Shown here: positions 37,216 through 61,520 of the stretch, one piece after another
Position numbering within the stretch: position 1 is the first letter of the stretch
Layout: every line of letters starts with the position of its first letter
Assembly (NCBI RefSeq): GCF_036287215.1
Contig: NZ_CP142860.1
Location: 744,001-808,000 of the forward strand
DNA: 64,000 bases
Direction of reading: 5' to 3'
Source: Caproiciproducens sp. CPB-2
GTDB lineage: Bacteria > Bacillota > Clostridia > Oscillospirales > Acutalibacteraceae
Position numbers and translations under genes: made by a program
Notes under the pieces: generated by a model
Told to the model about the DNA's origin: nothing
The model's input: the letters and a program-made list of their open reading frames with translations, nothing else
The model's database searches: none

Positions 37216-37250
37216 GGGAGCGGACAGAAACTGTCGGCTCCCCTGTTTTC
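37216..37250 (+). terminator. Probable terminator or attenuator after the permease gene
   Basis: GGGAGCGGACAG pairs with CTGTCGGCTCCC (one mismatch) around a three-base loop, followed by CTGTTTTCG. It would separate transporter and two-component transcripts. Confidence 0.6.
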
Positions 37251-37308
37251 GTAATGGGCTTTTCGGATCCCGGCAACCATTGTATAATGGAATAGGGATG
37301 GTGATCAT

Positions 37309-41535: not shown

Positions 41536-41602
41536 GTTGTTTCGGTTTTTTCCCTGTTGCTTTACAGGAGCTGTCCATAAAATGCAGCTTATAATTTTAG
41601 TT

Positions 41603-41626
41603 AATATTGAAATATATTTCAATATT
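41603..41626. promoter_or_regulatory. 24-bp palindromic operator (probable SorC site), copy 1
   Basis: AATATTGAAATA followed directly by its exact complement TATTTCAATATT. It is centred about 45 bp before the presumed transcription start set by TATAAT at 41648-41653. The -35 region is poor, which fits an activator site. The SorC-family regulator encoded at 46163 is the obvious candidate. Confidence 0.6.
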
Positions 41627-41647
41627 TTCTTATGATTTTTAGGCAGT

Positions 41648-41653
41648 TATAAT
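41648..41653 (+). promoter_or_regulatory. -10 box of RuBisCO-like gene copy 1
   Basis: TATAAT with no clear -35 hexamer 17 bp upstream. The same box lies at 47458-47463 before copy 2. Confidence 0.55.
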
Positions 41654-41704
41654 AGGGCCATAGGAAATAACTTAGCCAAAGAAAACAAAGAAGGAGTGGA
41701 CATC

Positions 41705-43024
41705 GTGTATATCGATCCTATTATCATTCAATACCCGGAAGGGCTGGAAAAAGACCGTTTCGTCATCGCAACCTATTACTGCGGAACCAAACGGAACACG
41801 AATATGATGAAGTTCGCCGCTGCTCTGGCGTGCGAGCAGACCTGCGGAACCTGGATCCAGGTACCCCAGGAAACCGCCGAGGTGCGTGAGAAATGCATCG
41901 GCAGAGTCGTCGGCGTTTATGAAGCGCCTTCCTACCAGATCGAGCTTCCGAAGGAAGTTGAGGAAAGAAACTTTATCGTCCGTATCGCCTATCCGTGGGC
42001 CAACTTCGGCGAAGCGCATTTCGCGATGATGCTGAGCGCCGTGATCGGCAATATCTCCAGTTCCGGCAAGGTCAAGCTGATCGATCTGGAATTCCCGGAT
42101 TCCTTCCTGAACCAGTTCCAGGGCCCGAAGTTCGGCGTCAAGGGCATCCGCGACCTCCTCGGCGTTTACGACCGCCCGCTGCTGAACAACATGATCAAGC
42201 CCTGCACGGGCCTTTCGCCGGAAGCGACGGCCGCGCTGGCTTTTGAATCCGCCGTCGGCGGCGTGGACGTCATCAAGGACGACGAACTGATCTCCAACCC
42301 GGTCCACTGTCCGCTGGTGAAAAGAGTTAAGGCGGTCATGGCCGCTCTGAAACGCGCGGACGAGGAGAAGGGCGAAAAGACGCTCTATGCCTTTAACATA
42401 ACAGACAGGACGGAGAACCTGAAGGACAACGCTTACAAAGCGCTGGAAGCGGGAGCCAACTGCCTGATGGTGAACTACAACACGATCGGTCTGGACGCGA
42501 CGAGAATGCTCGCGGAGGACAAGGATATCAACGTTCCGATTCTGGGACACTCGGATTATACGGGAGCGCTGTACGAGTCCCCGTGGTCGGGCGTGAGCGC
42601 GGGCCTGATCGGCGCGAAGCTGCCGAGGCTGGCCGGTGTGGATATGATCATCGCCCTGACGCCTTACGGCAAGTTCCCGATGATGATGGATACGTTTGTG
42701 GACAGCGGATACCGGATGCTGTCCCCTCTGGGCAACATCAAGCCGGTGTTCCCGATGCCGGGCGGCGGCACGACGCAGGGTCACGTGGAAGACGTCGTCA
42801 AGAAGTTCGGCAACGACGTGATGATCGCGAGCGGCGCGGGCATTCACGGCCATCCGATGGGGCCGAGGGCCGGGGCAATCGCCTTCCGTCAGGCCATCGA
42901 CGCCGCTGTTTCCGGGCAGAACATGCTGGAAGCGGCAAAGCAGCATAAGGAGCTGCAGGCGGCGTTTGACGCGTGGGGCTACTATCAGGAAGGCAAGACC
43001 GGCATCTTTGATCTGAAGGGCTGA
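41705..43024 (+). CDS. RuBisCO-like protein (form IV-type), copy 1
   Basis: About 439 residues. GTG 41705 is the best start, eight bases after AAGGAG; GTG 41696 overlaps that ribosome site. N-terminal RuBisCO domain (RFVIATYYCG, EQTCGTWIQVP, SAVIGN) and C-terminal TIM barrel. By eye the following RuBisCO positions are kept: Glu60, Thr65, Asn123, Lys175 (MIKPC), carbamylated Lys201 with Asp203/Glu204 (IKDDE), His294 and Lys334 (PYGK). Lys177, Arg295, His327 and Ser379 are changed. It should do enolase, isomerase or decarboxylase chemistry on a phosphorylated ketose rather than CO2 fixation. It heads a unit with an FGGY kinase and an unknown membrane protein. Confidence 0.92.
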   Translation: MYIDPIIIQYPEGLEKDRFVIATYYCGTKRNTNMMKFAAALACEQTCGTWIQVPQETAEVREKCIGRVVGVYEAPSYQIELPKEVEERNFIVRIAYPWANFGEAHFAMMLSAVIGNISSSGKVKLIDLEFPDSFLNQFQGPKFGVKGIRDLLGVYDRPLLNNMIKPCTGLSPEATAALAFESAVGGVDVIKDDELISNPVHCPLVKRVKAVMAALKRADEEKGEKTLYAFNITDRTENLKDNAYKALEAGANCLMVNYNTIGLDATRMLAEDKDINVPILGHSDYTGALYESPWSGVSAGLIGAKLPRLAGVDMIIALTPYGKFPMMMDTFVDSGYRMLSPLGNIKPVFPMPGGGTTQGHVEDVVKKFGNDVMIASGAGIHGHPMGPRAGAIAFRQAIDAAVSGQNMLEAAKQHKELQAAFDAWGYYQEGKTGIFDLKG

Positions 43025-43415
43025 TTGTTTTTCAGGAATTTTAAAAGAATTGAGATGTTAAAAGCAGTTGAATGTACGCATGCGTACATTCAACTGCTCC
43101 ATTTAAGAACTTTATTTTCCAATACAAACTAATAAAATATTCAGAATCTTGAATTAAAAACAGGTTTCTTCCCGTATTGCGTAAAAGGACGCCAATAGGG
43201 GGAGTGCCTTTTCCTTATATTTGTTTATGAACTGCCCGGTTTCTTTTCCAGTGCGATTGTCTGGTTCCGAAACCGCCCGCAGCCGATTGAGGGCCGCGGA
43301 CGGATCAATAGATTCGGAGAAAAGTTTTTTGAAAGGGTTGGAGTTGATTGCAGAAATCTTCCTGGCAGGGTCAGAACCAGGAAGTGCAGTAAAACAAATT
43401 ACGGGAGGAATTGTA
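43025..43415. other. 391-bp gap between RuBisCO-like copy 1 and kinase 1
   Basis: Begins with the end of the direct repeat and a 36-bp palindrome (43063-43098). An open frame from 43221 runs into the kinase but its first 65 codons do not resemble the family. Nothing else supported. Confidence 0.5.
43063..43098 (+). terminator. Hairpin after RuBisCO-like copy 1
   Basis: A perfect palindrome with 18-bp arms (AGCAGTTGAATGTACGCA and its complement). No strong T run follows, so it may be a weak terminator or an mRNA-stabilising structure. Confidence 0.55.
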
Positions 43416-44981
43416 TTGAAACAGAAAAAGTATGTGGTTGGAGTGGACTGTGGAACAACAAGCAGCAAATCGTTTGTCTTTGACCTGGAAGGGAACTGCC
43501 TCGGTTCTGGACAGATCATGAACCCGCTGACGTACCCCGCGGTCGGACGGGTGGAGTGCGACGGAGAGGAACTGATTAAGGTCCTGCATGAGACGACCCG
43601 CCTCGCTATTAAGAACAGCGGGGTGGACCCGGAGGAAATTGCCGGGGTAAGCTTCGACATGTTCCGCTGCACTATGGTGACTCGCGATCGGGACGGCGGG
43701 TTTACCACGCCGATTATTATCTGGCAGGATCTGCGCAGCGCCGAAATGCTCCCGAAAATGAAGGAGCAGCTTGCGGCGGCGGGAATGACGCCGGGTGACC
43801 TTTACGACATGTGCGGAATGCCGCTGGGCGGCGTCAACCCATCCGGAAAATTGCAGTGGGTAAAGGAAAAGAAACCCGAGGCGTATCAGAATGCCGTCAG
43901 AATCCACACTATGATGGGACTTTTGACCAAAGCCTACGGCGCCGACGACTACTACGACGATATCAACGACACGCCGTGGCTTCAGCTGAACGGGCCGGAT
44001 TTCAAGTACAGCGAAAAGCTGTGCAAGGTATTCGGGGTGGATATCGACAAGCTGGCTCCTCTGAAAACGACGGGAACGATCATCGGAAAAGTATCTCCCG
44101 AAATCGCGGAAAAGACCGGGCTTGCGGTCGGGACTCCACTGGTCATGGGTACGGGCGACCAGCAGGCGGGATGCCTCGGCTGCGGCTGTGTCAAGGAAGG
44201 CACGGGCTATGCCTGCGGCGGTACGGCGGGCATTACGGCCGGAAAATCCACCAGGCTGCTGAGGGACCCGGCGAAGAAATGCTACATATTGGGAACGCCC
44301 GACGGAGCATGGGTCATGGAAGGGCAGGCGAATGCCGCGGGCAGCGCCTTTAAGTGGTTCAAGGGAGAATTCTGCGATGTGGAAAGCATGACCGCGAAGT
44401 ACTTGGGGCTGGAGGCATATGACTTTCTGACGAAAGCGGCCCAGAAGTCCAGCCCGGGTGCGAACGGATGTTTTTTCCTTCCCTATCTGCAGGGGGCGAA
44501 CACGCCTAATTACAACGCGGATGCGCGCGGCACTTACATAGGGATGACCTTCGCCCACACGAGGAACGATCTTGTCCGCGCGACGATGGAGGGAATCTGC
44601 TTCGATATCCGCGATATGCTTGAAGCAATGGTAAAAGGAAATGTTCCCAATTTTGATGTTGTCCGGCTGACCGGAGGAGTCGCCAGGTCCGGTTTCTGGT
44701 GCCAGATGCAGGCCGATATTTACAACAGACCCTGTGAAACCGTGGCGGTGGAGGAAGCCACGGGACTTGGGTGTGCCATGGTCGCTGCCGTCGGCGTCGG
44801 AATCTATCAGGACTTTGAGGAAGCCGCCGCGCACATGGTTAAGGTCACAAAACGCTATGAACCGAATCCCAAAAATGTTCCCATTTATGAAGATGCTTAC
44901 CAGACCTGGAGAAAAGTGTATCAGGCGCTCAACGGGGAAGCCTATTCCGCTGTTACGGCGTTCCAGGAGAAATACCGCTGA
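43416..44981 (+). CDS. FGGY-family carbohydrate kinase 1
   Basis: About 521 residues from TTG 43416, behind ACGGGAGGAATTGTA. N-terminal phosphate loop GVDCGTTSSKSFVFD; the presumed catalytic Asp is in IIWQDLRSAEM; ATP-side motifs are GTGDQQAGCLGCG and RLTGGVARSGFWCQMQADIY. Closest in feel to xylulokinases but clearly diverged from the second FGGY kinase (52495). It phosphorylates an unknown ketose or polyol, presumably the substrate precursor of the RuBisCO-like protein. Confidence 0.9.
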   Translation: MKQKKYVVGVDCGTTSSKSFVFDLEGNCLGSGQIMNPLTYPAVGRVECDGEELIKVLHETTRLAIKNSGVDPEEIAGVSFDMFRCTMVTRDRDGGFTTPIIIWQDLRSAEMLPKMKEQLAAAGMTPGDLYDMCGMPLGGVNPSGKLQWVKEKKPEAYQNAVRIHTMMGLLTKAYGADDYYDDINDTPWLQLNGPDFKYSEKLCKVFGVDIDKLAPLKTTGTIIGKVSPEIAEKTGLAVGTPLVMGTGDQQAGCLGCGCVKEGTGYACGGTAGITAGKSTRLLRDPAKKCYILGTPDGAWVMEGQANAAGSAFKWFKGEFCDVESMTAKYLGLEAYDFLTKAAQKSSPGANGCFFLPYLQGANTPNYNADARGTYIGMTFAHTRNDLVRATMEGICFDIRDMLEAMVKGNVPNFDVVRLTGGVARSGFWCQMQADIYNRPCETVAVEEATGLGCAMVAAVGVGIYQDFEEAAAHMVKVTKRYEPNPKNVPIYEDAYQTWRKVYQALNGEAYSAVTAFQEKYR

Positions 44982-45082
44982 GCGATCCGTAGGAACCGAC
45001 GGGAGTTTCCCGCAGTTTGTAAGGATCGCGCGGAAGCTTCCTTATACGGATTTTATAAATCTATATTACAGGAGGAATGAAA

Positions 45083-45919
45083 ATGGTAAACGCTGTTAGT
45101 GTGATAGGAGCATTTGCAGGAGGATGTATTGGAGCGCTGGTCGGAGGAAACCCGGCTTTTGTCATCGCGGGTATTGTCGGGGTCATTTTTCTTTCCATGG
45201 GAAACGTGCCGGCTGCAGCGGTTCTGCAGCAGACTGTGGAATACACGCTGTTCACCCCGTGCATCTGTTTTGCAGGCGGCGTGGCTGCGCTGGCTTTTGC
45301 CGCCAACAAAAGGAAATACGATATTAACGGCTTGAACCTCAATAAAGCGCTGGGTTTTACAAAGGACCCGATGACGGTTTTGGTCGGGGGGATTTTCGGC
45401 CTGTTCGGTTTTCTGTGCCTGAACCTGGCCGTCTATTTCAAGCTGCCGCTGGACGCGGGCGCCTTGACGGTGATGCTTTCCGGATTTATCGTCAGGCTGC
45501 TGTTCGGCAACCGGACAATCGTGAATCCCAAATTAAACGAAAATCTTCTTTTTCATAAGGATGGCATCCCGCACTGGGCCTTTAAAATACTGGTCGGTCT
45601 GGTGGTTGCGACGGTAGCGGCCTATGCCGTTCATCTGACGGGCATTGCAACGACCGGGTTTTACATCAGTGCCCTTTCTCTCATCTTTTTCCTCAGGGAC
45701 GGCGATTTTCCCGTTACCCACCATGTTACCCTGATCGCGGGCTACGCGACGCTTCGCTCCGGCAGCGTGCTGACAGGCATCCTGTTCGGGGTGCTTGCCT
45801 GCATTGTGTTTGAACTGTATCAGAATATCATCAATTCCAATGTGGACTCCCATATTGACGCTCCCGCGTCCACCATTGCCACTTTAAGTCTCGTTATATT
45901 CACTGTCTTCCCCGCCTGA
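45083..45919 (+). CDS. Polytopic membrane protein of unknown function
   Basis: About 278 residues from ATG 45083 (ACAGGAGGAATGAAA upstream; ATG 45077 is too close to the site). About eight hydrophobic segments, Gly-rich in the first (GAFAGGCIGALVGGNPAFVI) and ending with HIDAPASTIATLSLVIF. A charged loop around residues 160-175 (NPKLNENLLFHKDGIPHWAF) separates two halves. I do not recognise the family. Placed after a kinase gene and before a SorC regulator gene, it is the best transporter candidate of the locus, since no ABC or PTS genes are present here. Confidence 0.75.
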   Translation: MVNAVSVIGAFAGGCIGALVGGNPAFVIAGIVGVIFLSMGNVPAAAVLQQTVEYTLFTPCICFAGGVAALAFAANKRKYDINGLNLNKALGFTKDPMTVLVGGIFGLFGFLCLNLAVYFKLPLDAGALTVMLSGFIVRLLFGNRTIVNPKLNENLLFHKDGIPHWAFKILVGLVVATVAAYAVHLTGIATTGFYISALSLIFFLRDGDFPVTHHVTLIAGYATLRSGSVLTGILFGVLACIVFELYQNIINSNVDSHIDAPASTIATLSLVIFTVFPA

Positions 45920-46162
45920 GCGGAAACGCCGGGCATTCAGCTTATACCGCCTCACCGGCCGTTGGCCGGCGGGGCGGCAGAAAATAAGAAAAAATCAAAT
46001 TGTCCCCGGGGCTGTGAAGTATGATTCATGAAATTAAGATTTTTCCCAAAATTCAGACATGGTTGTCATTATACAATAATTGATAGATATAATGAAAGTG
46101 GACGCTGTTCAATACATGATGGTGAATTTTATGTGCCGACATCACTATGGGAGGAAAGAGTA

Positions 46163-47134
46163 ATGAAAAGCGAAGTGTACAATCAGTCTGTTTGCATTAT
46201 GGATTCTGTCGCGTATCTGTACTACATTGAAAAAAGGACTCTTGCAGAAATTTCGCAGGATTTAGGCATTTCCAAGCCTACCGTCTCGCGGCTTCTGAAG
46301 AGAGCGGTAGAGGAAGGCGTTGTCGAATTCAAAATTTCCAAGCCGTTTGCGGACTGCATTGATCTGGAAAAGAAGATTATGAGCCGCTATGATCTGAAAT
46401 CGGTGATTGTCGTCCCGGTATTGGAGCCGGAAAAGCTGCTGAATCCCGAAGAGACCAAGAAAAGGGTTGCGCTGGAAGGGGCCCGCTATGTACAGCGGAT
46501 CGTTACGGACGACGATATCCTCGGTTTGACCTGGGGTGGTACGATGTATCATCTGATCCAGTATCTGAACCCCTGCCGGAAGGTGAACGCCAAAGTCATC
46601 ACGATGCACGGCAGCATTGCCGACTGTGACGAAAAGCTGGCGGTCAACAACCTTGTACGGCGCGCCGCCATGGCTTTCGGCGGAAAAAATGTGTCGATCT
46701 GCGCGAACGGCCTTGCTGACAGCAGGGAACACTGCCGTCAGATTCAGGATGACACGAAATTCCAGAAAATATTTTCCCTGCTGAAATACATCAATATTTC
46801 CGTAAGCGGGGTCGGGGTGTTTTATCCCAGCGTGGATTCCCTGCTGGCTTCCTCCGGCTATCTGAAGCCCCATGAAATGAAGGAGCTGATCGAGCAGAAG
46901 GTGTGCTGCGATTTCTCCCTCCGTTTCATTAACAGGGACGGCCAGGAGTGCGAAAGCAGCCTGAAGGACCGGACCCTTTCCATCGGACTCGATACATACA
47001 GGCAGATTCCCTGCAAAATCGTGGTGGCCTCCGGCAGCAAAAAGGCGCATGCCATCCGCGCTCTGCTGAAAGGAAATCTGGTCGACGTCCTTGTTATTGA
47101 CTATTATCTTGCAAGTGCCCTGTACGCGCTTTGA
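46163..47134 (+). CDS. SorC/DeoR-family sugar-responsive regulator
   Basis: 323 residues from ATG 46163, behind GGGAGGAAAGAGTA. N-terminal helix-turn-helix (AEISQDLGISKPTVSRLLKR) and a C-terminal phosphosugar-binding domain of the SorC type (GLTWGGTMYHLIQYL, NVSICANGLADS, a late region ASGSKKAHAIRALLKGNLVD followed by VLVIDY). SorC proteins respond to phosphorylated sugars. Its likely sites are the matching palindromes before both RuBisCO-like gene copies. It lies between the two modules, so it can couple them. Confidence 0.88.
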   Translation: MKSEVYNQSVCIMDSVAYLYYIEKRTLAEISQDLGISKPTVSRLLKRAVEEGVVEFKISKPFADCIDLEKKIMSRYDLKSVIVVPVLEPEKLLNPEETKKRVALEGARYVQRIVTDDDILGLTWGGTMYHLIQYLNPCRKVNAKVITMHGSIADCDEKLAVNNLVRRAAMAFGGKNVSICANGLADSREHCRQIQDDTKFQKIFSLLKYINISVSGVGVFYPSVDSLLASSGYLKPHEMKELIEQKVCCDFSLRFINRDGQECESSLKDRTLSIGLDTYRQIPCKIVVASGSKKAHAIRALLKGNLVDVLVIDYYLASALYAL

Positions 47135-47271
47135 AAGCGGTCGGAAACGGGTGCGGGTACCTCCCTTCTCAACTGGTACCCGCGGCTGTTTATATATAGA
47201 TGATGTTTTGAAATATTGGTTGAAACACCTTCCCATGAAACGTAAGACCTCCTTTGAAACATCCTTGCGAT

Positions 47272-47310
47272 ATTGCGGGTTTTCTGAAACGAAATCAGAA
47301 AGCCCGCAAT
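47272..47310 (+). terminator. Terminator-like hairpin after the SorC gene
   Basis: ATTGCGGGTTTTCTGA pairs with TCAGAAAGCCCGCAAT around a seven-base loop. The U run after it is weak (TCGTTATC). Confidence 0.5.
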
Positions 47311-47412
47311 TCGTTATCGGGAATTCCCCGGACTGACGCAGGTCATTTCCAGCGTCTTATACTCCTGCGGCGCAGACGGTAAACAGGATGGGATAAGCCT
47401 ATAATTTTAGTT

Positions 47413-47436
47413 AATATTGAAATATTTTTCAATATT
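47413..47436. promoter_or_regulatory. Palindromic operator (probable SorC site), copy 2
   Basis: Same site as at 41603-41626 but with T at 47426, which creates one mismatch next to the centre. The -10 TATAAT is at 47458-47463. Confidence 0.58.
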
Positions 47437-47514
47437 TTCTTATGATTTTTAGGCAGTTATAATAGGGCCATAGGAAATAACTTAGCCAAAGAAAACAAAG
47501 AAGGAGTGGACATC

Positions 47515-48834
47515 GTGTATATCGATCCTATTATCATTCAATACCCGGAAGGGCTGGAAAAAGACCGTTTCGTCATCGCAACCTATTACTGCGGAACCAA
47601 ACGGAACACGAATATGATGAAGTTCGCCGCTGCTCTGGCGTGCGAGCAGACCTGCGGAACCTGGATCCAGGTACCCCAGGAAACCGCCGAGGTGCGTGAG
47701 AAATGCATCGGCAGAGTCGTCGGCGTTTATGAAGCGCCTTCCTACCAGATCGAGCTTCCGAAGGAAGTTGAGGAAAGAAACTTTATCGTCCGTATCGCCT
47801 ATCCGTGGGCCAACTTCGGCGAAGCGCATTTCGCGATGATGCTGAGCGCCGTGATCGGCAATATCTCCAGTTCCGGCAAGGTCAAGCTGATCGATCTGGA
47901 ATTCCCGGATTCCTTCCTGAACCAGTTCCAGGGCCCGAAGTTCGGCGTCAAGGGCATCCGCGACCTCCTCGGCGTTTACGACCGCCCGCTGCTGAACAAC
48001 ATGATCAAGCCCTGCACGGGCCTTTCGCCGGAAGCGACGGCCGCGCTGGCTTTTGAATCCGCCGTCGGCGGCGTGGACGTCATCAAGGACGACGAACTGA
48101 TCTCCAACCCGGTCCACTGTCCGCTGGTGAAAAGAGTTAAGGCGGTCATGGCCGCTCTGAAACGCGCGGACGAGGAGAAGGGCGAAAAGACGCTCTATGC
48201 CTTTAACATAACAGACAGGACGGAGAACCTGAAGGACAACGCTTACAAAGCGCTGGAAGCGGGAGCCAACTGCCTGATGGTGAACTACAACACGATCGGT
48301 CTGGACGCGACGAGAATGCTCGCGGAGGACAAGGATATCAACGTTCCGATTCTGGGACACTCGGATTATACGGGAGCGCTGTACGAGTCCCCGTGGTCGG
48401 GCGTGAGCGCGGGCCTGATCGGCGCGAAGCTGCCGAGGCTGGCCGGTGTGGATATGATCATCGCCCTGACGCCTTACGGCAAGTTCCCGATGATGATGGA
48501 TACGTTTGTGGACAGCGGATACCGGATGCTGTCCCCTCTGGGCAACATCAAGCCGGTGTTCCCGATGCCGGGCGGCGGCACGACGCAGGGTCACGTGGAA
48601 GACGTCGTCAAGAAGTTCGGCAACGACGTGATGATCGCGAGCGGCGCGGGCATTCACGGCCATCCGATGGGGCCGAGGGCCGGGGCAATCGCCTTCCGTC
48701 AGGCCATCGACGCCGCTGTTTCCGGGCAGAACATGCTGGAAGCGGCAAAGCAGCATAAGGAGCTGCAGGCGGCGTTTGACGCGTGGGGCTACTATCAGGA
48801 AGGCAAGACCGGCATCTTTGATCTGAAGGGCTGA
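47515..48834 (+). CDS. RuBisCO-like protein (form IV-type), copy 2
   Basis: Identical in protein sequence to the copy at 41705-43024, with the same GTG start and ribosome site. It heads the second module (GlpA/GlpB-like dehydrogenase, DUF1667, FGGY kinase 2, AraM-like dehydrogenase, HAD phosphatases). Having the same enzyme at the head of two units under one type of operator would supply it whichever module is induced, or simply raise its dose. Confidence 0.92.
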   Translation: MYIDPIIIQYPEGLEKDRFVIATYYCGTKRNTNMMKFAAALACEQTCGTWIQVPQETAEVREKCIGRVVGVYEAPSYQIELPKEVEERNFIVRIAYPWANFGEAHFAMMLSAVIGNISSSGKVKLIDLEFPDSFLNQFQGPKFGVKGIRDLLGVYDRPLLNNMIKPCTGLSPEATAALAFESAVGGVDVIKDDELISNPVHCPLVKRVKAVMAALKRADEEKGEKTLYAFNITDRTENLKDNAYKALEAGANCLMVNYNTIGLDATRMLAEDKDINVPILGHSDYTGALYESPWSGVSAGLIGAKLPRLAGVDMIIALTPYGKFPMMMDTFVDSGYRMLSPLGNIKPVFPMPGGGTTQGHVEDVVKKFGNDVMIASGAGIHGHPMGPRAGAIAFRQAIDAAVSGQNMLEAAKQHKELQAAFDAWGYYQEGKTGIFDLKG

Positions 48835-48874
48835 TTGTTTTTCAGGAATTTTAAAAGAATTGAGATGTTAAAAG

Positions 48875-48906
48875 CAGTTGAATGTGCCGATGCGCACATT
48901 CAACTG
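48875..48906 (+). terminator. Hairpin after RuBisCO-like copy 2
   Basis: CAGTTGAATGTGC pairs with GCACATTCAACTG around a six-base loop. Compared with the copy 1 hairpin the inner bases differ, yet pairing is kept. Confidence 0.55.
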
Positions 48907-49062
48907 TCAGATTTAAAGAGATATTTTACCAATGAAGAATTATTTATTGCCTTCTATCTTGGGGCAATAGAGGTCCCGTTTACCCAAATTTTCGGTGTTG
49001 GCTTTGATTCATAAGCTTTCCTGGTCTGCTTATGAGACGAAAAGGACGGAGGAGTAATCATA

Positions 49063-50505
49063 ATGTATGATGTTGTAATCATCGGCGCCGGGGTTACCGG
49101 GTGCTGTATTGCAAGGGAATTATCACGGTATCAGCTGAACGCGTGTGTGGTGGAAAAGGGCGATGATGTCGCTTCCGGCACTTCAAAAGCGAACAGCGGA
49201 GTCATTCATTCGGGGTTTGACGCGAAGCCTGGGTCGCTGATGGCGAAATTAAATGTGGAAGGCAACGCTCTTCTCTGGAAACTGGCGGAAGAACTGGATT
49301 TTCCGGTGAAAAAGAACGGCGCTCTGGTGGTTGCCACCGACGAGGAGGAAGTAAAGCATCTGGAACTTCTGCTCGATCAGGCCCGTCAAAACGGGGTTCC
49401 GGGCGTACGGATCCTTTCCCGTGAGGAAGTCATGAACATGGAACCCAACCTTACGGATAAAACGGTGGCGGCTCTTTACGCACCCACGGGCGGAGTGATC
49501 GACCCGTTCAACCTTGCCATTGCCATGGGGGAAAACGCCAACGTGAACGGGGTGGAGTTCCGGTTTGAGACGGAAGTCCTGCAGATCCGTAAAAAGAACG
49601 GAAAATACGAGCTGGAAACCAATCACGGAACCATTGAGACGAAATGCGTCGTCAATGCAGCCGGTGTTTATGCGGATAAATTCCACAACATGGTGAGCGA
49701 AGAAAAAATACATATTACCGCGCGCAAAGGAGAATATCTGCTGTTTGACAAAACGGTGGGGGACCTTTTCACCGCTTCCGTTTTCCCGGTTCCGGGAAAA
49801 ATGGGAAAGGGGATTCTCATTGCGCCCACTGTCCATGGAAATTTATATGTCGGCCCCACCGCCAACGACGTGGAGGATAAGGAATCAACCAATACCACGC
49901 AGGATATCCTGCAGGTTCTGACGGAAAAGGCAAAGGCCAATCATCTGTCAAAACGGGTGATTCCCATGAATAAGGTGATTACCTCTTTCGCGGGCCTGCG
50001 TGCGCATCAGGACAAACATGATTTTATTGTGCAGGAGGTTCCGGACGCCGAGTACTTCTTCGACGCCGCGGGAATCGAATCCCCCGGACTGACCAGTTCG
50101 CCCGCGATCGGGGTGATGATGGCGAAGATGGTTTCGGAAAAACTGAAGCTGAAAGAAAAAACTGGTTTTGTTTCTGCCAGAAAAGGGGTTTTAAAGCCCG
50201 AAAAACTCACGGATGAGGAAAGAAACGAACTGATTAAGAAAAATCCGGCGTACGGCAATATCATCTGCCGTTGTGAAATGATTACCGAAGGGGAAATTGT
50301 GGACGCGATTCACCGGCCTTTGGGGGCAAAATCCATGGACAGTATCAAAAGAAGAACCCGCGCGGGCATGGGCAGGTGTCAGGCCGGCTTCTGCACGCCC
50401 AGAACGATGGAGATCCTTTCCAGGGAACTGCGGATCGATATGACCGAAATCACCAAAAAGGGCGGCGGTTCCCGGCTCGTTGTCGGCAAAACCAAAGAAC
50501 TGTAA
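49063..50505 (+). CDS. GlpA-like FAD-dependent glycerol-3-phosphate dehydrogenase family protein
   Basis: 480 residues. N-terminal FAD site VIIGAGVTGCCIARELSRY, DAO-type core (ANSGVIHSGFDAKPGSL), and a C-terminal BFD-type [2Fe-2S] domain with the four-cysteine pattern CRC...RCQAGFC. Family members oxidise glycerol 3-phosphate or related polyol phosphates. It forms a set with the GlpB-like and DUF1667 genes downstream (gaps of 29 and 8 bp). Next to an FGGY kinase the set resembles the kinase-dehydrogenase pair of glycerol or erythritol catabolism. Good ribosome site (GGAGGAGTAATCATA). Confidence 0.88.
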   Translation: MYDVVIIGAGVTGCCIARELSRYQLNACVVEKGDDVASGTSKANSGVIHSGFDAKPGSLMAKLNVEGNALLWKLAEELDFPVKKNGALVVATDEEEVKHLELLLDQARQNGVPGVRILSREEVMNMEPNLTDKTVAALYAPTGGVIDPFNLAIAMGENANVNGVEFRFETEVLQIRKKNGKYELETNHGTIETKCVVNAAGVYADKFHNMVSEEKIHITARKGEYLLFDKTVGDLFTASVFPVPGKMGKGILIAPTVHGNLYVGPTANDVEDKESTNTTQDILQVLTEKAKANHLSKRVIPMNKVITSFAGLRAHQDKHDFIVQEVPDAEYFFDAAGIESPGLTSSPAIGVMMAKMVSEKLKLKEKTGFVSARKGVLKPEKLTDEERNELIKKNPAYGNIICRCEMITEGEIVDAIHRPLGAKSMDSIKRRTRAGMGRCQAGFCTPRTMEILSRELRIDMTEITKKGGGSRLVVGKTKEL

Positions 50506-50534
50506 AAGGTTTACATGGAAGAAAGGCATGATGA

Positions 50535-51809
50535 ATGATGAAGTCATATGAAATTGTTATTATCGGCGGGGGACCCGCCGGGCTTGCGGCGGCTTTGGCG
50601 GCGAAGGAATCGGGCGTCGGCAGCATCCTGATTCTCGAAAGGGACAGGGAACTCGGCGGGATTCTGAACCAGTGCATCCACAACGGCTTCGGACTGCATA
50701 CCTTCAAGGAGGAGCTGACCGGACCGGAATATGCCTATCGGTTTATTGAGAAGGTTCTTGAACAGAAGATAGAGTATAAGCTGAATACCATGGTCATGGA
50801 TATTACGCAGTCCAAAATCGTCACCTATATGAACAGGACGGAGGGCATGGTACATATTCAGGCAAAAGCGATCATATTGGCGATGGGCTGCCGGGAAAGG
50901 CCCAGAGGGGCGCTGAACATCCCCGGCTTCCGGCCGGCCGGCATTTTCTCCGCGGGCACCGCCCAGCGGCTTGTCAATATGGAGGGCTATATGCCCGGCC
51001 GGGAGGTCGTTATTTTGGGTTCGGGGGACATCGGCCTGATTATGGCGCGCAGAATGACGCTGGAGGGTGCCCATGTCAAGGTGGTCGCCGAAATTATGCC
51101 GTATTCGGGCGGACTCAAGCGGAACATCGTGCAGTGCCTCGACGATTTCGGGATCCCTCTCCGGTTAAGCCATACCATTGTGGATATCCGGGGGGTTGAA
51201 CGTGTGGAAGGGGTCACCATCGCGCAGGTGGATGAGCACATGAAGCCTGTTCCGGGAACCGAGGAGGATTACGACTGTGATACCATCCTGCTTTCCGTGG
51301 GCCTGATCCCGGAAAACGAGCTGTCGAACAAGATAAACGTTCAGATGAACGCCGTCACCAGCGGGCCGGTCGTCAACGAAAGCCTTGAAACCAATGTCGA
51401 GGGGGTATTCGCCTGCGGGAACGTCCTTCATGTGCACGATCTGGTGGATTATGTTTCCGAAGAAGCCGCTCTGGCGGGAAAGAACGCCGCAAAATACGTG
51501 CTCGGAAAATTCAGCGGTCAGGAAAATTCCGCACATACCATTACGCTGGAAGCGGTTGACGGGGTCCGCTACACCGTGCCGAAAACCGTGAATATCGGCC
51601 GGATGGAGGACACGGTCAAGGTGCGTTTCCGTGTCGGGAATGTCTTTAAGGACAGCTATGTCAGCGTTTACTATGACGATGAGCGGGTGCTGCACCGCAA
51701 AAAAATCATTATGGCCCCCGGGGAAATGGAGGATATCACCCTCGACAGGAAAAAGCTGCTGGGATATCCCGATTTGAAGAAAATTACCGTTAAGATCGAA
51801 AAGGAGTAA
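50535..51809 (+). CDS. GlpB-like FAD/NAD(P)-dependent oxidoreductase
   Basis: 424 residues of the pyridine nucleotide-disulfide type: FAD site VIIGGGPAGLAAALAAKESG, second Rossmann motif ILGSGDIGLIMARR, and FACGNVLHVHDLVDYVSEEA near the C-terminus. No redox-active CxxC is seen at the usual place; CRERPRGA follows the sheet instead. It probably passes electrons from the GlpA-like subunit to NAD(P) or a carrier. Start at 50535 or the next ATG at 50538. Confidence 0.88.
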   Translation: MMKSYEIVIIGGGPAGLAAALAAKESGVGSILILERDRELGGILNQCIHNGFGLHTFKEELTGPEYAYRFIEKVLEQKIEYKLNTMVMDITQSKIVTYMNRTEGMVHIQAKAIILAMGCRERPRGALNIPGFRPAGIFSAGTAQRLVNMEGYMPGREVVILGSGDIGLIMARRMTLEGAHVKVVAEIMPYSGGLKRNIVQCLDDFGIPLRLSHTIVDIRGVERVEGVTIAQVDEHMKPVPGTEEDYDCDTILLSVGLIPENELSNKINVQMNAVTSGPVVNESLETNVEGVFACGNVLHVHDLVDYVSEEAALAGKNAAKYVLGKFSGQENSAHTITLEAVDGVRYTVPKTVNIGRMEDTVKVRFRVGNVFKDSYVSVYYDDERVLHRKKIIMAPGEMEDITLDRKKLLGYPDLKKITVKIEKE

Positions 51810-51817
51810 GGAGCATC

Positions 51818-52192
51818 ATGGAGAAGAGAGAACTGATCTGTATCGGCTGCCCGCTCGGCTGCATGATTACCGTAGATATGCAGGACGGTAAAGTGGTGAA
51901 GGTGACCGGGAATACCTGCCCGCGCGGAGAAAAGTACGCTGTAAAAGAAGTTACATGTCCCACAAGGATCGTAACCTCTTCGGTAAGGGTCTCCGGCGGG
52001 GATATTCATGTGTTGTCCGTGAAAACAAGGGAAGCGGTTCCCAAAGAAAAAATATTTGACTGTGCAAATGCTCTGAAAACCGTCAAGGTGGCCGCTCCGG
52101 TCAGAATCGGAGACATCATCTTAAAGGACGCGGCGGGAACGGGGATTCCTTTTGTGGCCACCAAAAATGTGAAATTCCGAAGCTCCCTCTGA
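51818..52192 (+). CDS. DUF1667 cysteine-rich protein
   Basis: 124 residues with an N-terminal cysteine group (LICIGCPLGCMITVD, then GNTCPRGEKYAVKEVTCPTR) suitable for an iron-sulfur cluster, and a small C-terminal beta domain. DUF1667 proteins regularly follow GlpA/GlpB-like genes in Clostridia and probably form a third subunit for electron transfer. The start is behind AGTAAGGAGCATC, eight bases after the GlpB-like stop. Confidence 0.87.
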   Translation: MEKRELICIGCPLGCMITVDMQDGKVVKVTGNTCPRGEKYAVKEVTCPTRIVTSSVRVSGGDIHVLSVKTREAVPKEKIFDCANALKTVKVAAPVRIGDIILKDAAGTGIPFVATKNVKFRSSL

Positions 52193-52494
52193 GAAAATTT
52201 GGTTATCTCCCGTTTTTTCACTGCGCGCAGGGGCGCGCACCGTGTGATTTTTCCTCAGCCTTATTACAGATCTTTTATTGGACACAGCGATCGTTGTACA
52301 AAGAAATATGCAACGTTCCACTCGGGGAATAAACCTGACGGCAGGTTTTATATGGGTTGGAATCGGTTACAGCGGAGCTTTTCGGTTGGGTCAGGACTAA
52401 AAGCTGTGTAAATTTTTAAGGCGAAGCATCAAATGCCGCGGTCATTGTGACTGCGGGAAAAGTATTGAAAAGGCTTATAAAGGGAGGAAAAACA
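52193..52494. other. 302-bp gap before FGGY kinase 2
   Basis: I see no gene, promoter consensus or strong hairpin. The frame upstream of the kinase start is open for 16 more codons only. Confidence 0.5.
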
Positions 52495-54054: not shown

Positions 54055-54064
54055 CAGCATTCCC

Positions 54065-54097
54065 GGTTGCGAAAGCCTGAGAAGGGCTTTCGCAACC
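54065..54097 (+). other. Intercistronic hairpin before the AraM-like gene
   Basis: GGTTGCGAAAGCC pairs perfectly with GGCTTTCGCAACC around a seven-base loop, 12 bp after the kinase stop and just before the ribosome site AAGGAAGGAG. No U run follows, so an mRNA processing or stability role is more likely than termination. Confidence 0.6.
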
Positions 54098-54120
54098 CCG
54101 CAAAAAGGAAGGAGTTCATC

Positions 54121-55632
54121 ATGTTAAACCGGTTAATGCCTCCCGTATTCAAGTACGACGTTGGCAATATGAAGGATTTGAATGAACGGATTAAACGCTG
54201 GTCGGATTACGATCAGATTCCCAAAATAGAACTGGAGGACGTGATCGTCGGCAGGGACGCCATCGAGCGGCTTCCCGAGGCGCTGCAGTCCCTGAATGTC
54301 CGGGCCGGGCGCAGGGTGCTCGCGGTCATGGACGAGACGGTCATTCTCCGCAAAGGCGAAAAGCTGAAGGAGCAGGTGCAGGCGCTGCTGACCCGGGCGG
54401 GTTACGCCGTGGAAAAGCTCGTCCTCAAGGGAGACGAGTACGGGGTCGTTCACGCGGACGCAAAGCAGGTGGAAACGGTTCAGTCCCGTCTGGACAAAAC
54501 CTGCGCGGTCATTTCCGTCGGATCAGGAACCGTTACGGATATTGCAAAGCACGCATGCTTCCTCTATCAGAATGAAAACGATTGCGAACGCATCCCGCTG
54601 ATTTCCTTTATGACGGCCAATACGGTACCTGCCTACACGTCCCGTTCCTCCATTATTTCCAAGGACGGCGTCAAGCGGACATGGCCTTCCCGTACGCCGA
54701 ATATTGTCCTGATGGACGTGCAGACCCTGATGGACTGCCCGCTGCACTATACGGTGGGGGGAGTAGGCGACCTTTTCCCGGTGTTCGACGCTTTCGCGGA
54801 CTGGTATCTGGCCGACTGCATGGGCACCGCAACGGTATTAGACGCCTGCTGGCGCATTGTGGACGACATCAAGGACCTTTTGATCCCGTATATGGAAGAA
54901 GTGGCCAACCGGACTTCCGCCGGAATGGAAGTGCTGGGGAAATGCCTGCTGGTGACCGGGCTCACCATGACGTTTGCGCAGGACTCCGTGCCGGTTTCCG
55001 GCTATGAGCATGTCATCAGCCATCTGCTGGACATGACTGCGGATTACGACAAAAGAAAGACGGGGGTGCACGGTCAGCAGGTGGGTGAATCGGTGCTCCT
55101 TGCTCTGATCAATATGGAAAAGCTCGTCGCCCGCCTTGACAAGGAGCTGGCGGACGGCGGAATCGATATCGGCAATTGCTATCCTTCGGAGGAAGAAATG
55201 CAGAAAAAGGTTCTGGATACGTTCCGGCCGATCGACCCCACGGGGAAAATGGGCCGCGAATGCTGGAACGATTACAGCCAGAAGCTGAAAAAATGGAACG
55301 ATAACCGTCCGAAGTTCGAAGCGTTCCTGAAGGAGTGGCCCGAACACCGCGCCGTCCTCAAAGAACTTCTTCCGCACACGGCGCTTGCCTGCGCGCGGGC
55401 GCTGAACAAAGCGGAGCATCCTCTGCTGTTCGGCGAGCTGGACGCCCCTGTCACGGAAGAGCGCTTCCGCTGGGCCATGCGCTTCGCCAATCTGATGCGC
55501 AAGCGGTTTACTTCCGCCGATTTGACCTATTTCCTGGGGTGGTATGATATGGATTGGGAAAATGACATTATCAGCCGATATTATGAAATAGTGAGAACCG
55601 TGCGCGCTGAGAATTCATCAGCGGCCCGCTAA
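54121..55632 (+). CDS. AraM/EgsA-like iron-type polyol-phosphate dehydrogenase (enlarged)
   Basis: 503 residues from ATG 54121 (AAAAAGGAAGGAGTTCATC upstream). NAD site ISVGSGTVTDIAKHA and presumed metal ligands Asp in GGVGDLFPVF, His in GYEHVISHLLD and His in GVHGQQVGESVL are those of sn-glycerol-1-phosphate dehydrogenases. Ordinary AraM/EgsA is about 390 residues; here roughly 100 extra residues form a C-terminal helical extension (after LKKWNDNRPKFEAFLKEWPE). It may reduce or oxidise a polyol phosphate or a non-phosphorylated polyol. The next gene is AraL-like, recalling the araL-araM pair of Bacillus. Confidence 0.85.
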   Translation: MLNRLMPPVFKYDVGNMKDLNERIKRWSDYDQIPKIELEDVIVGRDAIERLPEALQSLNVRAGRRVLAVMDETVILRKGEKLKEQVQALLTRAGYAVEKLVLKGDEYGVVHADAKQVETVQSRLDKTCAVISVGSGTVTDIAKHACFLYQNENDCERIPLISFMTANTVPAYTSRSSIISKDGVKRTWPSRTPNIVLMDVQTLMDCPLHYTVGGVGDLFPVFDAFADWYLADCMGTATVLDACWRIVDDIKDLLIPYMEEVANRTSAGMEVLGKCLLVTGLTMTFAQDSVPVSGYEHVISHLLDMTADYDKRKTGVHGQQVGESVLLALINMEKLVARLDKELADGGIDIGNCYPSEEEMQKKVLDTFRPIDPTGKMGRECWNDYSQKLKKWNDNRPKFEAFLKEWPEHRAVLKELLPHTALACARALNKAEHPLLFGELDAPVTEERFRWAMRFANLMRKRFTSADLTYFLGWYDMDWENDIISRYYEIVRTVRAENSSAAR

Positions 55633-55684
55633 TAAAATCAGACTTCTTGACGCGGGGGAAAGAGGGAGTCTTTGGAGGTTAACC

Positions 55685-56503
55685 ATGAGCGACAATCGTA
55701 TTAAGGTAAACGCGGACCCCGACCGTCTTTTGGACAGAATCAAATGCTTTGCGCTGGATATGGATGGGACGATCTATCTGGGGGAGCAGTGGATAGACGG
55801 GGCAAGGGACTTTTTGAAACGGGTGGAGGAGACCGGGAGAAAATATGTTTTCATGACCAACAACTCTTCCAAAAGCGCGGATGTATACTATGACAAGCTG
55901 GAGCGGATGGGGCTGAAGATCCGTCCCGAGCAGCTGATTACCTCCGGTCACGCGACCGTCGATTACCTGAAAAAGAATTTTCCTGGCAAAAAAGTTTTCC
56001 TGCTGGGGAACCCCATGCTGACCGCGGAATTTGAAAAAATGGGAATCCCGCTGGACGACGAGCATCCGGACCTTGTCATCACCGCATTCGACACCTCTCT
56101 GGATTATAAAAAAATGTGCAAGGTCTGCGATTTCGTCAGGGAGGGACTTCCGTACATAGCGACGCATCCGGACTTTAATTGCCCGACGGAAACCGGGTTT
56201 ATTCCGGACGCCGGCTCCATCCACGCTTTTATAGAAGCGTCCACCAAACGCCGACCCGACAAGGTGATCGGAAAACCGAACCGTGAGATTGTGGCGTATA
56301 CGCTGAAAATGACCCACTGTACGGAAGAAGAGACCGCCATGGTGGGTGACCGCCTGTATACGGACATCGCGGCCGGGGTCAACAACGGGCTCACGGGAAT
56401 CTTTGTCCTCAGCGGCGAGGCACAGCTGAAGGACCTTCCGGATTCGGATGTCAAGCCTCATCTGATTTTTGATTCCGTTAAGCAAATCATTCCCTATCTG
56501 TAA
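55685..56503 (+). CDS. HAD-IIA phosphatase, NagD/AraL-like
   Basis: 272 residues: motif I ALDMDGTIYLGE, motif II FMTNNSSKS, Lys in VIGKPNREIV, and motif IV MVGDRLYTDIAAGVNNG. AraL and NagD dephosphorylate sugar phosphates that build up as by-products. Start behind TTTGGAGGTTAACC. It lies directly after the AraM-like gene. Confidence 0.9.
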   Translation: MSDNRIKVNADPDRLLDRIKCFALDMDGTIYLGEQWIDGARDFLKRVEETGRKYVFMTNNSSKSADVYYDKLERMGLKIRPEQLITSGHATVDYLKKNFPGKKVFLLGNPMLTAEFEKMGIPLDDEHPDLVITAFDTSLDYKKMCKVCDFVREGLPYIATHPDFNCPTETGFIPDAGSIHAFIEASTKRRPDKVIGKPNREIVAYTLKMTHCTEEETAMVGDRLYTDIAAGVNNGLTGIFVLSGEAQLKDLPDSDVKPHLIFDSVKQIIPYL

Positions 56504-56546
56504 AATCGGTCCTTGTCATACATTACTGAAAAAGGGGGACGGAGGA

Positions 56547-57353
56547 ATGTCCATCAGACTGATTGCACTGGACGTGGACGGTACCCTGACCGATGAAGAG
56601 GGCAGAATCAGCGCGGAAAATGCTTCCGCGGTCAAAGCGGCCATGGAATCCGGAATTCAGGTGATCCTGGCTACGGGCAGGCCGCTCCAGGGAGTGGAAT
56701 CCATCTGCCGGGAGCTGGGAATGAACGGGCCGCTGATTCTGGGAAACGGGGCTCTGGTCCTGTCGGGGGACGAAGTGTGGTATCAGGATTTTCTGGACCC
56801 GGAGGATTTGCGCGCCGTTTACGAACAAGGAATAACGGTCGGCGGCATCTCCATGCTGGCCTTCCAGCCCGAGGTCATCCCCTACTGGTTCCCGCAGGAC
56901 ATGGACAAAAACTGGCTGTCGGATATTCTGGATTCGTTCCGGCTTTATAAGCGGTTCGACGTCCCTGCGGCGGCCGACCTGCCGCTTGAGCGGGTGAACA
57001 AGGTCATGTTTCTGGGCGATGCTCAGTCGGTCGCACAGGCGCTGGCCACATGGCCGGAGAAGATCGGGCATCTTGCAACGGGGCGCTCCTACCCCTATCT
57101 GGGAGAGGTCAATACGCCGACGGCCAACAAGGGCAAAGCGCTTTCCATTGTGTGCGGGCGGCTGGGGCTTTCTCCGGAGGAGGTCATGGCGGTCGGGGAC
57201 GGTGAAACGGATTTGCCCATGCTTGATTTTGCAGGGACGGCGGTGTTTGTTCGCCGGGGCTCCGCAATTCCGAAGCTGCCTGGCGGCGCGCTTGTGGTTC
57301 CGACGGAAGAGCGCGACCGCGGCGTCGCCTGGGCGCTGACGCACTGTATGTGA
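56547..57353 (+). CDS. HAD-family Cof-type sugar phosphatase
   Basis: 268 residues from ATG 56547 (GGACGGAGGA upstream); an earlier in-frame ATG lies inside the preceding gene. Motif I ALDVDGTLTDEEG, Thr in LATGRPLQGV, and motif IV VGDGETDLPMLDFAG with a large C2 cap domain between. It removes phosphate from a sugar phosphate or related metabolite. Last gene of module 2, followed by a strong terminator. Confidence 0.9.
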   Translation: MSIRLIALDVDGTLTDEEGRISAENASAVKAAMESGIQVILATGRPLQGVESICRELGMNGPLILGNGALVLSGDEVWYQDFLDPEDLRAVYEQGITVGGISMLAFQPEVIPYWFPQDMDKNWLSDILDSFRLYKRFDVPAAADLPLERVNKVMFLGDAQSVAQALATWPEKIGHLATGRSYPYLGEVNTPTANKGKALSIVCGRLGLSPEEVMAVGDGETDLPMLDFAGTAVFVRRGSAIPKLPGGALVVPTEERDRGVAWALTHCM

Positions 57354-61498: not shown

Positions 61499-61520
61499 AT
61501 CTTACGGTTTCCTTCCAAAT

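What the first reader, a model, noticed from the sequence alone, without database searches (positions are those of the whole stretch)
41590..57353. Candidate uncharacterised RuBisCO-like catabolic pathway in two modules
Two modules, each headed by the same RuBisCO-like gene, combine FGGY kinases, a GlpA/GlpB/DUF1667 flavin dehydrogenase, an AraM-like polyol-phosphate dehydrogenase, AraL/NagD- and Cof-type phosphatases, an unknown membrane protein and a SorC regulator. Known RuBisCO-like routes (methionine salvage, apionate/3-oxo-isoapionate use) do not, to my knowledge, use this partner set. A kinase plus GlpD-like dehydrogenase is the logic of glycerol and erythritol catabolism. My inference is that a polyol or branched sugar is phosphorylated, oxidised to a keto-phosphate and then isomerised or decarboxylated by the RuBisCO-like protein.
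Basis: partly seen in the sequence, partly recalled or inferred. Interest (0 to 1): 0.85.

Follow-up and report, generated by a model that had tools for sequence, protein, structure and literature searches.

The report
RuBisCO-like sugar-alcohol catabolism gene cluster
A Caproiciproducens-like bacterium carries a two-part gene cluster in which a relative of the CO2-fixing enzyme RuBisCO seems to work with a sugar kinase and a glycerol-phosphate-type dehydrogenase to break down a still unidentified sugar alcohol, a setting in which I know of no characterised RuBisCO relative.

Summary
Two near-identical RuBisCO-like (RLP) genes head FGGY kinases, a GlpA/GlpB/DUF1667 flavoprotein, a glycerol-1-phosphate-dehydrogenase-like protein, two HAD phosphatases, a DUF7973 membrane protein and a SorC regulator. 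The RLP misses the NCBI cut-offs for MtnW, OiaX and RuBisCO. In 80 loci (79 of the closest relatives plus the window) the gene lies near an FGGY kinase (22), a galactitol-type PTS permease (10), or UPF0261/PEP-hydrolase-like genes (35), never two of these; 13 have none. RLPs up to 88% identical sit in different contexts, which suggests one RLP reaction with interchangeable front ends. A palindrome (TATTGAAA-N4-TTTCAATA) precedes both RLP copies and, in some relatives, also glpA, the kinase gene or araM, so the parts look like one SorC regulon. Best reading: a polyol is phosphorylated, oxidised next to the phosphate to a ketose-1-phosphate, and the RLP moves the carbonyl, taking the place of EryC in an erythritol-type pathway. 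Substrate and reaction are inferred, not shown. Decarboxylation is disfavoured because residues that acid-sugar RLPs keep are lost. The R. rubrum isomerase clade was not compared. New variant of a known kind.

The parts
41590..43075 (+). Duplicated block, copy 1 (upstream region, operator and RLP gene); copy 2 is 47400-48885
   Evidence: exact run 41617-43075 repeated at +5810, one mismatch at 41616
41603..41626 (.). Palindromic candidate SorC operator AATATTGAAATATATTTCAATATT
   Evidence: two such sites in the genome at up to 3 mismatches; similar sites upstream of RLPs in relatives
41705..43024 (+). RuBisCO-like protein, copy 1
   Evidence: PF00016 186 bits, PF02788 54 bits; below MtnW and OiaX cut-offs
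43221..44981 (+). FGGY carbohydrate kinase 1 (FGGY domain starts near 43431; the real start is probably near there)
   Evidence: with seven others from RLP loci it forms one group, support 100
45077..45919 (+). DUF7973 membrane protein, candidate small-solute facilitator
46028..47134 (+). SorC/DeoR-type regulator with sugar-binding domain
   Evidence: PF04198 173 bits
47413..47436 (.). Second copy of the palindromic operator
47515..48834 (+). RuBisCO-like protein, copy 2 (identical protein)
49063..50505 (+). GlpA-like FAD dehydrogenase with BFD-type [2Fe-2S] domain
   Evidence: DAO 255 bits, Fer2_BFD; type-2 G3P oxidase model 311 bits, below its cut-off 460; 7-row group
50535..51809 (+). GlpB-like flavoprotein
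   Evidence: Pyr_redox_2 117 bits
51818..52192 (+). DUF1667 third subunit
   Evidence: PF07892 113 bits
52447..54054 (+). FGGY carbohydrate kinase 2
   Evidence: groups with FGGY genes of the RLP loci L006 and L011, support 99
54067..55632 (+). AraM/glycerol-1-phosphate-dehydrogenase-like protein with long C-terminal extension
   Evidence: Fe-ADH_2; aligns to G1PDH 9h4x with its Asp and two His motifs retained (their metal-binding role is recalled)
55685..56503 (+). NagD/AraL-type HAD phosphatase
   Evidence: Hydrolase_6 98 bits
56469..57353 (+). Cof-type HAD phosphatase
   Evidence: Hydrolase_3 142 bits

Best explanation
This is a SorC-controlled catabolic regulon for a small neutral polyol (or closely related sugar). 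Proposed steps: uptake, perhaps through the DUF7973 protein; phosphorylation of a terminal hydroxyl by the FGGY kinase; oxidation of the carbon next to the phosphate by the GlpA/GlpB/DUF1667 flavoprotein, giving a ketose-1-phosphate with a DHAP-like head; then enolisation and carbonyl migration or epimerisation by the RLP, giving a ketose phosphate that enters the pentose-phosphate pathway or, in some relatives, an aldolase. FGGY2, AraM and the NagD/Cof phosphatases would serve a second branch or substrate, or recycle dead-end phosphates. Seen in sequence here: gene content, recurrence, a shared operator in some relatives, and the active-site pattern. Inferred: substrate, order of steps, SorC binding and the RLP reaction.
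For: FGGY1-type kinases of 8 RLP loci and GlpA of 7 form well-supported groups apart from the genome's own GlpK and other GlpA copies. Two Eubacterium loci and one Acetobacterium locus carry RLP, SorC, FGGY1 and GlpA/B/DUF1667 without FGGY2, AraM, NagD, Cof or DUF7973. In other lineages a PTS stands where the kinase is, in 3 of 10 PTS loci with a GlpA- or GlpD-like oxidase. The operator also precedes glpA (L020, L021, L027) and FGGY1 (L036), and lies between SorC and araM in L032; with up to 2 mismatches it occurs 33 times within 250 nt upstream of RLPs, against 0 for each of 12 permuted patterns. The RLP keeps the equivalents of RuBisCO N123, K175, K201, D203, E204, H294 and K334 but not R295, H327 and S379, which fits a monophosphate with an uncharged tail (residue roles recalled). 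The R. rubrum RLP makes a methylthioxylulose-5-phosphate from a methylthioribulose-1-phosphate (methods passage of PMC4958253).
Against: No substrate, activity or expression data. 35 of 80 loci have a UPF0261/PEP-hydrolase-like set and no FGGY kinase or PTS permease, and 13 have none of the three, so kinase plus GlpA is not universal for this RLP; GlpA/GlpD-like genes are in 12 of 80. L006 and L011 have FGGY2, AraM and NagD without GlpABC. L020 and L021 also have a class II aldolase-like gene and L018 a second GlpA-like gene, so the compact sets may not be complete. In the window's genome both operators lie in the duplicated block, so they are not independent evidence, and no site with up to 2 mismatches precedes the kinase or glpA genes there. 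19 of the 43 loci with SorC lack the site within 250 nt of the RLP. The reciprocal test from the kinase side did not complete (and repeats).
Confidence: 0.5

Rival explanations
1. The RLP decarboxylates or transcarboxylates a phosphorylated keto-acid, as in OiaX-type acid-sugar pathways; the kinase and flavoprotein act on an aldonate or another hydroxy acid.
For: The loop-6 lysine (K326 = RuBisCO K334) is kept, as in OiaX and the other acid-sugar-linked RLPs and unlike MtnW. The GlpA-like protein also scores against L-2-hydroxyglutarate oxidase (166 bits, cut-off 299) and FGGY1 against gluconokinase (258 bits, cut-off 648.55).
Against: Equivalents of R295 and H327 are absent in every clade row, while the seven acid-sugar-linked RLPs there keep Arg and His or Gln. 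No DUF1537-type kinase family was hit by the window proteins scanned. OiaX score 216.6 against cut-off 700.
Confidence: 0.2
2. A variant of methionine, 5-deoxyribose or methylthioribose salvage: the RLP is a 5-substituted-ribulose-1-phosphate isomerase or DK-MTP-1-P enolase homologue.
For: The nearest characterised relatives by score are MtnW (361 bits to NF007095; PDB 2oek). Absence of R295 and H327 equivalents is shared with the one MtnW. The R. rubrum RLP acts on methylthioribulose-1-phosphate (PMC4958253 passages), and its clade was not compared here.
Against: Below both MtnW cut-offs. MtnW has Lys where the clade has Asn (Glu in one row), and Ser where the clade has the loop-6 Lys. The families hit by the cluster genes are not ones I know from salvage pathways (recalled).
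Confidence: 0.12
3. The RLP makes an intermediate shared by several pathways, and the kinase/GlpABC sets are only neighbours regulated by the same signal, serving a parallel pathway that converges later.
For: RLPs 83 to 88% identical sit in kinase, PTS or UPF0261/PEP-hydrolase contexts, so the RLP may be a common downstream step rather than the direct next enzyme.
Against: The same operator precedes RLP and kinase or glpA genes in some relatives; two Eubacterium loci and one Acetobacterium locus have this set without the window's other partners.
Confidence: 0.15

Closest known systems
eryABCD erythritol catabolism (Rhizobiales; Brucella)
   Same: A kinase (EryA), a dehydrogenase (EryB), an isomerase/epimerase-type step (EryC) and a regulator (EryD). 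That eryABCD are the core genes is from passages of PMC3599248; that they are FGGY, GlpD-like, TIM-barrel and DeoR/SorC-family proteins is recalled (the paper's text does not hold the words SorC, epimerase or glycerol-3-phosphate dehydrogenase)
   Different: The isomerase position is held by an RLP; the dehydrogenase is a GlpA/GlpB/DUF1667 type; substrate unknown
MtnW, DK-MTP-1-P enolase of methionine salvage
   Same: Nearest characterised family by score; 39.5% identity to the Priestia MtnW; R295 and H327 equivalents also absent
   Different: Below cut-off; N119 and loop-6 K326 where MtnW has Lys and Ser; different partners
R. rubrum RLP, MTRu-1-P isomerase
   Same: Proposed chemistry: carbonyl migration in a ketose-1-phosphate (PMC4958253 passages)
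   Different: Not compared at sequence level here; its pathway is MTA recycling, not polyol use
OiaX and other RLPs beside four-carbon acid-sugar kinases
   Same: RLP beside a sugar kinase in a catabolic locus
   Different: DUF1537-type kinase (equivalence of that name recalled) instead of FGGY; 31% (OiaX) and 36% (Cupriavidus) identity; Arg and His/Gln at R295/H327; separate group in the tree
RLP of 'Candidatus Hakubanella' (Actinobacteria, PMC7325909)
   Same: Form IV RLP of unknown function that its authors suggest may be a sugar epimerase because of its neighbours (passage); four actinobacterial loci in our set have an FGGY kinase nearby (L074, L077, L079, L080)
   Different: That exact protein was not compared here; the four loci show no GlpABC

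Membership tests
MtnW (DK-MTP-1-P enolase) | Score above the curated equivalog cut-offs | tested here: not met
   NF007095 361.2 < 409; TIGR03332 313 < 513.6
MtnW (DK-MTP-1-P enolase) | Catalytic Lys98 (role recalled from Imker et al. 2007) | tested here: not met
   Asn119 at that column in the window RLP; Lys in the Priestia MtnW and in the five PDB sequences shown
OiaX (3-oxo-isoapionate-4-phosphate decarboxylase) | Score above the curated cut-off | tested here: not met
   NF042437 216.6 < 700
OiaX (3-oxo-isoapionate-4-phosphate decarboxylase) | Four-carbon acid-sugar (DUF1537-type) kinase partner | tested here: not met
   Pfam scans of the window cluster find FGGY kinases; the OiaX locus fetched and six related RLP loci have the acid-sugar kinase next to the RLP
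True RuBisCO (forms I to III) | R295, H327, S379 (roles recalled) | tested here: not met
   S286, I319 and G356 at these columns; form III model 268 < 497
True RuBisCO (forms I to III) | Carbamylated lysine and metal ligands (K201, D203, E204; roles recalled) | tested here: met
   K194, D196, E197, the same in all 94 rows
R. rubrum-type MTRu-1-P isomerase | Sequence clade and activity on ketose-1-phosphate | not tested
   No sequence of that enzyme was fetched here
eryABCD-like polyol pathway | FGGY kinase plus glycerol-phosphate-dehydrogenase-type flavoprotein plus SorC/DeoR regulator in one locus | tested here: met
eryABCD-like polyol pathway | EryC-type isomerase | tested here: not met
   No other isomerase-type family was hit by the cluster proteins; no EryC sequence was compared
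eryABCD-like polyol pathway | Growth on erythritol or another polyol | not testable with these tools
   needs culture
Glycerol operon | Kinase above the GlpK cut-off (TIGR01311) | tested here: not met
   FGGY1 204 and FGGY2 215 against 590.35; a separate GlpK (744 bits) with GlpABC and a MIP-family channel is at about 3.12-3.13 Mb

The most novel reading that the evidence does not exclude
This RLP clade is a general ketose-1-phosphate isomerase that serves as a common exit step for three unrelated front ends in anaerobes: FGGY kinase plus GlpA-type oxidation, galactitol-type PTS, and a UPF0261/PEP-hydrolase-like module of unknown chemistry. It would be the first RuBisCO-fold enzyme in ordinary sugar-alcohol fermentation that I know of, and it would give a handle on the function of UPF0261 (Tm-1-like) and PF09370.
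Probability: 0.33. Interest if true: 0.85.

Novelty: new variant of a known kind. Interest (0 to 1): 0.64.

Why it matters
The physiological roles of RLPs that I could name are methionine or MTA salvage and acid-sugar degradation. A clade found in cultivated anaerobes, with a recurrent operator and a short list of candidate substrates, is directly testable by growth, expression and enzyme assay. It would add a catabolic pathway to the RuBisCO superfamily. The swap of front ends around nearly identical RLPs also offers a route to the function of two uncharacterised families (UPF0261, PF09370).

Tried and rejected

Literature: searched the held open library. No row that I saw shows an RLP together with an FGGY kinase, GlpABC or a polyol pathway. 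For some searches only 20 of 1,048, 20 of 766 and 15 of 27 matching papers were listed; one search was badly framed and is uninformative; most listed papers were not opened. Three look-ups of RLP papers (Zhang 2016, Tabita 2007, Imker 2008) found them not held, and Carter 2018 and Imker 2007 were not looked up, so statements resting on them are recalled or second-hand. Papers seen as passages only: PMC6302742, PMC7325909, PMC4958253, PMC3599248. A supplementary legend in PMC4958253 names the R. rubrum products as MTXu-1P and MTRu-5P (3:1), its methods text says MTXu-5P; I follow the latter.

The reciprocal test (do close FGGY1 homologues have an RLP neighbour?) could not be run. An indirect sign: 4 of the 120 listed FGGY1 homologues (P0153, P0155, P0159, P0170) have a longest contig of the same length as a listed RLP homologue (P0037, P0020, P0051, P0045). 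The lists were compared by eye, so 4 is a lower bound, and shared contigs are only implied.
Full report
WHAT IS THERE. The window is bases 744001-808000 of a single-contig 3.45-Mb genome. Between 41590 and 57353 the + strand carries, in order: RLP, FGGY kinase, DUF7973 membrane protein, SorC regulator, RLP again, GlpA-like FAD protein with a BFD-type iron-sulfur domain, GlpB-like flavoprotein, DUF1667, a second FGGY kinase, an AraM/G1PDH-like protein, a NagD-type HAD and a Cof-type HAD. The two RLP genes, with about 115 nt of upstream DNA, lie in a 1.49-kb block repeated at +5810 with a single mismatch. A PF00016 search finds no other RuBisCO-family gene in the genome. Caproiciproducens faecalis (L005) has the same two-copy layout; its own two copies are nearly identical, while its RLP is 90% identical to the window's. 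That is what gene conversion within each genome would give, though recent independent duplication is not excluded.

WHICH RLP. The best homologue in the protein search is from Caproiciproducens faecalis, 90%. NCBIfam scores are below cut-off for MtnW (361.2 against 409; 313 against 513.6), OiaX (216.6 against 700) and form III RuBisCO (268 against 497). In an alignment of 94 sequences, nine of them references (one MtnW, one OiaX, six further RLPs beside a four-carbon acid-sugar kinase, one form I RuBisCO), the window RLP keeps the equivalents of RuBisCO N123, K175, K201, D203, E204, H294 and K334, and has Ser, Ile and Gly at R295, H327 and S379. The MtnW has Lys at N123 and Ser at K334. OiaX and the six further RLPs keep Arg at 295 and His or Gln at 327. 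The RuBisCO numbering and residue roles are recalled. In a quick tree (20 of 88 inner branches under 80) the window clade is separate from the OiaX/acid-sugar group; the long MtnW branch falls inside, beside a divergent second RLP of L024 and L046, a join that the program flags as possibly false. The reference set lacks the R. rubrum and Chlorobium RLPs, so membership of the clades named in the literature is untested.

NEIGHBOURHOODS. A scan of one genome per species found 386 relatives, of which the best 80 were returned. After leaving out L003 (same species as the window by its 99% RLP), 79 loci plus the window were scored with profiles within 8 kb of the RLP. FGGY kinase: 22 of 80; galactitol-type PTS permease: 10 of 80; UPF0261 and/or PEP-hydrolase-like PF09370: 35 of 80; none of the three: 13 of 80. 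No locus has two of these three. Against strict exclusion: L028, a UPF0261-type locus, has a PTS enzyme I gene, and L047, counted under 'none', has PTS enzyme I and a LevR-like regulator. Some contigs are short, so absences are weaker than presences, and related genomes are not independent. GlpA- or GlpD-like oxidases are in 12 of 80: 8 with FGGY, 3 with PTS, 1 with neither. AraM is in 7, all with FGGY. SorC is in 43. Eubacterium barkeri, E. aggregans and an Acetobacterium wieringae MAG have RLP, SorC, FGGY1, GlpA, GlpB and DUF1667 without the window's other partners; the first two also have a class II aldolase-like gene in the fetched stretch and the third a second GlpA-like gene. Two Propionibacteriaceae MAGs (L006, L011) have RLP, NagD, AraM and an FGGY gene that groups with the window's FGGY2. 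The window thus combines both sets. FGGY1-type genes of 8 RLP loci form one group (support 100) and GlpA genes of 7 loci another (99), apart from the genome's own GlpK and GlpA paralogues; the GlpA genes of L024, L031 and L046 form a separate group.

FRONT ENDS SWAP AROUND THE SAME RLP. On the quick RLP tree the context label (FGGY, PTS, UPF0261 type) changes at least 8 times over 68 labelled rows; no shuffled control was run. RLPs 83% identical sit in UPF0261 and FGGY contexts (L029, L036), and RLPs 88% identical in PEP-hydrolase and PTS contexts (L030, L024). Proteins that alike usually catalyse the same reaction, so the RLP step is probably common and the enzymes feeding it interchangeable. 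This is inference. L030 is a 6.8-kb contig without a UPF0261 hit, so that example is the weaker one.

REGULATION. A palindrome TATTGAAA-N4-TTTCAATA lies about 100 nt (start to start) upstream of both RLP copies. The 24-nt form occurs only at these two places in the genome with up to 3 mismatches; because both are inside the duplicated block this alone proves little. Across the loci, with up to 3 mismatches, there are 49 sites within 250 nt upstream of RLP starts (2.19 per kb) and 43 elsewhere (0.032 per kb) (L003 included). With up to 2 mismatches in the 80-locus set there are 33 near RLPs and 16 elsewhere; the 33 lie in 26 loci, 24 of them with a SorC gene within 8 kb. Twelve permuted half-sites gave 0 near RLPs each, and 0 to 3 elsewhere. 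By context, 10 of 22 FGGY, 9 of 35 UPF0261-type, 2 of 10 PTS and 5 of 13 other loci have such a site; 19 of the 43 loci with SorC do not, so the motif is not universal. In relatives the site also precedes glpA (L020, L021, L027, one mismatch) and FGGY1 (L036, perfect), lies between SorC and araM in L032 (two mismatches, a small ORF in between), and precedes the PEP-hydrolase operon in L029 and SorC-RLP in L040 and L041. This supports one SorC regulon of kinase, dehydrogenase and RLP; in the window itself the kinase and glpA genes would have to be read through from the RLP promoters.

HOW IT MAY WORK. A FGGY kinase followed by a GlpA-type oxidation yields a ketone next to a phosphorylated carbon, as in glycerol to DHAP (established chemistry). 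Known RLPs act on such phosphorylated ketones; the R. rubrum RLP is used to make methylthioxylulose-5-phosphate from methylthioribulose-1-phosphate (methods passage of PMC4958253). The residue pattern suggests a single phosphate and an uncharged tail. Hence the proposal that the RLP moves the carbonyl of a ketose-1-phosphate. In erythritol catabolism the core genes are eryABCD (PMC3599248, passages); from recall, EryA is an FGGY kinase, EryB a GlpD-like dehydrogenase and EryC the following isomerase, so the RLP would stand in EryC's place. DUF7973 could be a channel: a paralogue (98 bits) lies about 4 kb from a GlpABC/GlpK-type set at about 2.49 Mb, and its model weakly resembles urea and ammonium channels. 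The AraM-like protein keeps the Asp and His motifs of G1PDH, so a NAD(P)-linked polyol-phosphate dehydrogenase or ketose-phosphate reductase is likely. Some relatives add aldolases: class II aldolase-like genes within 8 kb in 6 of 80 loci, and two aldolase families in L033.

LIMITS. No experiment, no substrate. The reciprocal neighbourhood test from the kinase side did not complete by the server in nine attempts. The literature check covers only the held open library and mostly listings, so a published assignment of this clade could have been missed.

Noticed in passing
L048-L051, L057-L064, L066, L068 (e.g. L060 9968-15205): Conserved order RLP, PEP-hydrolase-like (PF09370), ComB-like phosphatase (PF04029), UPF0261, second PF09370, mostly in Syntrophomonadaceae and other Bacillota MAGs; function unknown.
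   Followed up: partly
window 41590-43075 and 47400-48885: RLP copies identical within the genome, while the pair in C. faecalis is also nearly identical: looks like concerted evolution, perhaps for dosage or shared control.
   Followed up: partly
window 43067-43094 and about 48875-48906: A perfect hairpin follows each RLP gene; the stems differ between the copies yet pairing is kept (GTTGAATGTACGC... against GTTGAATGTGCC...), no clear T-run after the first.
   Followed up: no
G000:C1 258736, 795920, 1395776, 2492233, 3123027: Five DUF1667 genes, each with GlpA- and GlpB-like neighbours; one set with GlpK and a MIP-family channel, one with a GlpK-type kinase, a GlcD-like protein and a DUF7973 paralogue, one next to a LarA-like protein.
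   Followed up: partly
L024 15894-17210, L046: A second, divergent RLP (361-363 bits to the window RLP) near PTS genes in the same locus as a close RLP; a Cof-type HAD follows it in L024.
   Followed up: no
L072, L074, L076, L078, L080, L082: Archaeal and actinobacterial members with FGGY kinase and a saccharopine-dehydrogenase-like protein nearby.
   Followed up: no
window 33222-39877: ABC transporter (solute-binding protein, ATPase, permease) followed by a sensor kinase (His_kinase family) and an AraC-type response regulator, upstream of the cluster.
   Followed up: no
window 59916-62519 (- strand): Cobalt/nickel-type CbiM-CbiQ-ATPase transporter with PDGLE domain.
   Followed up: no
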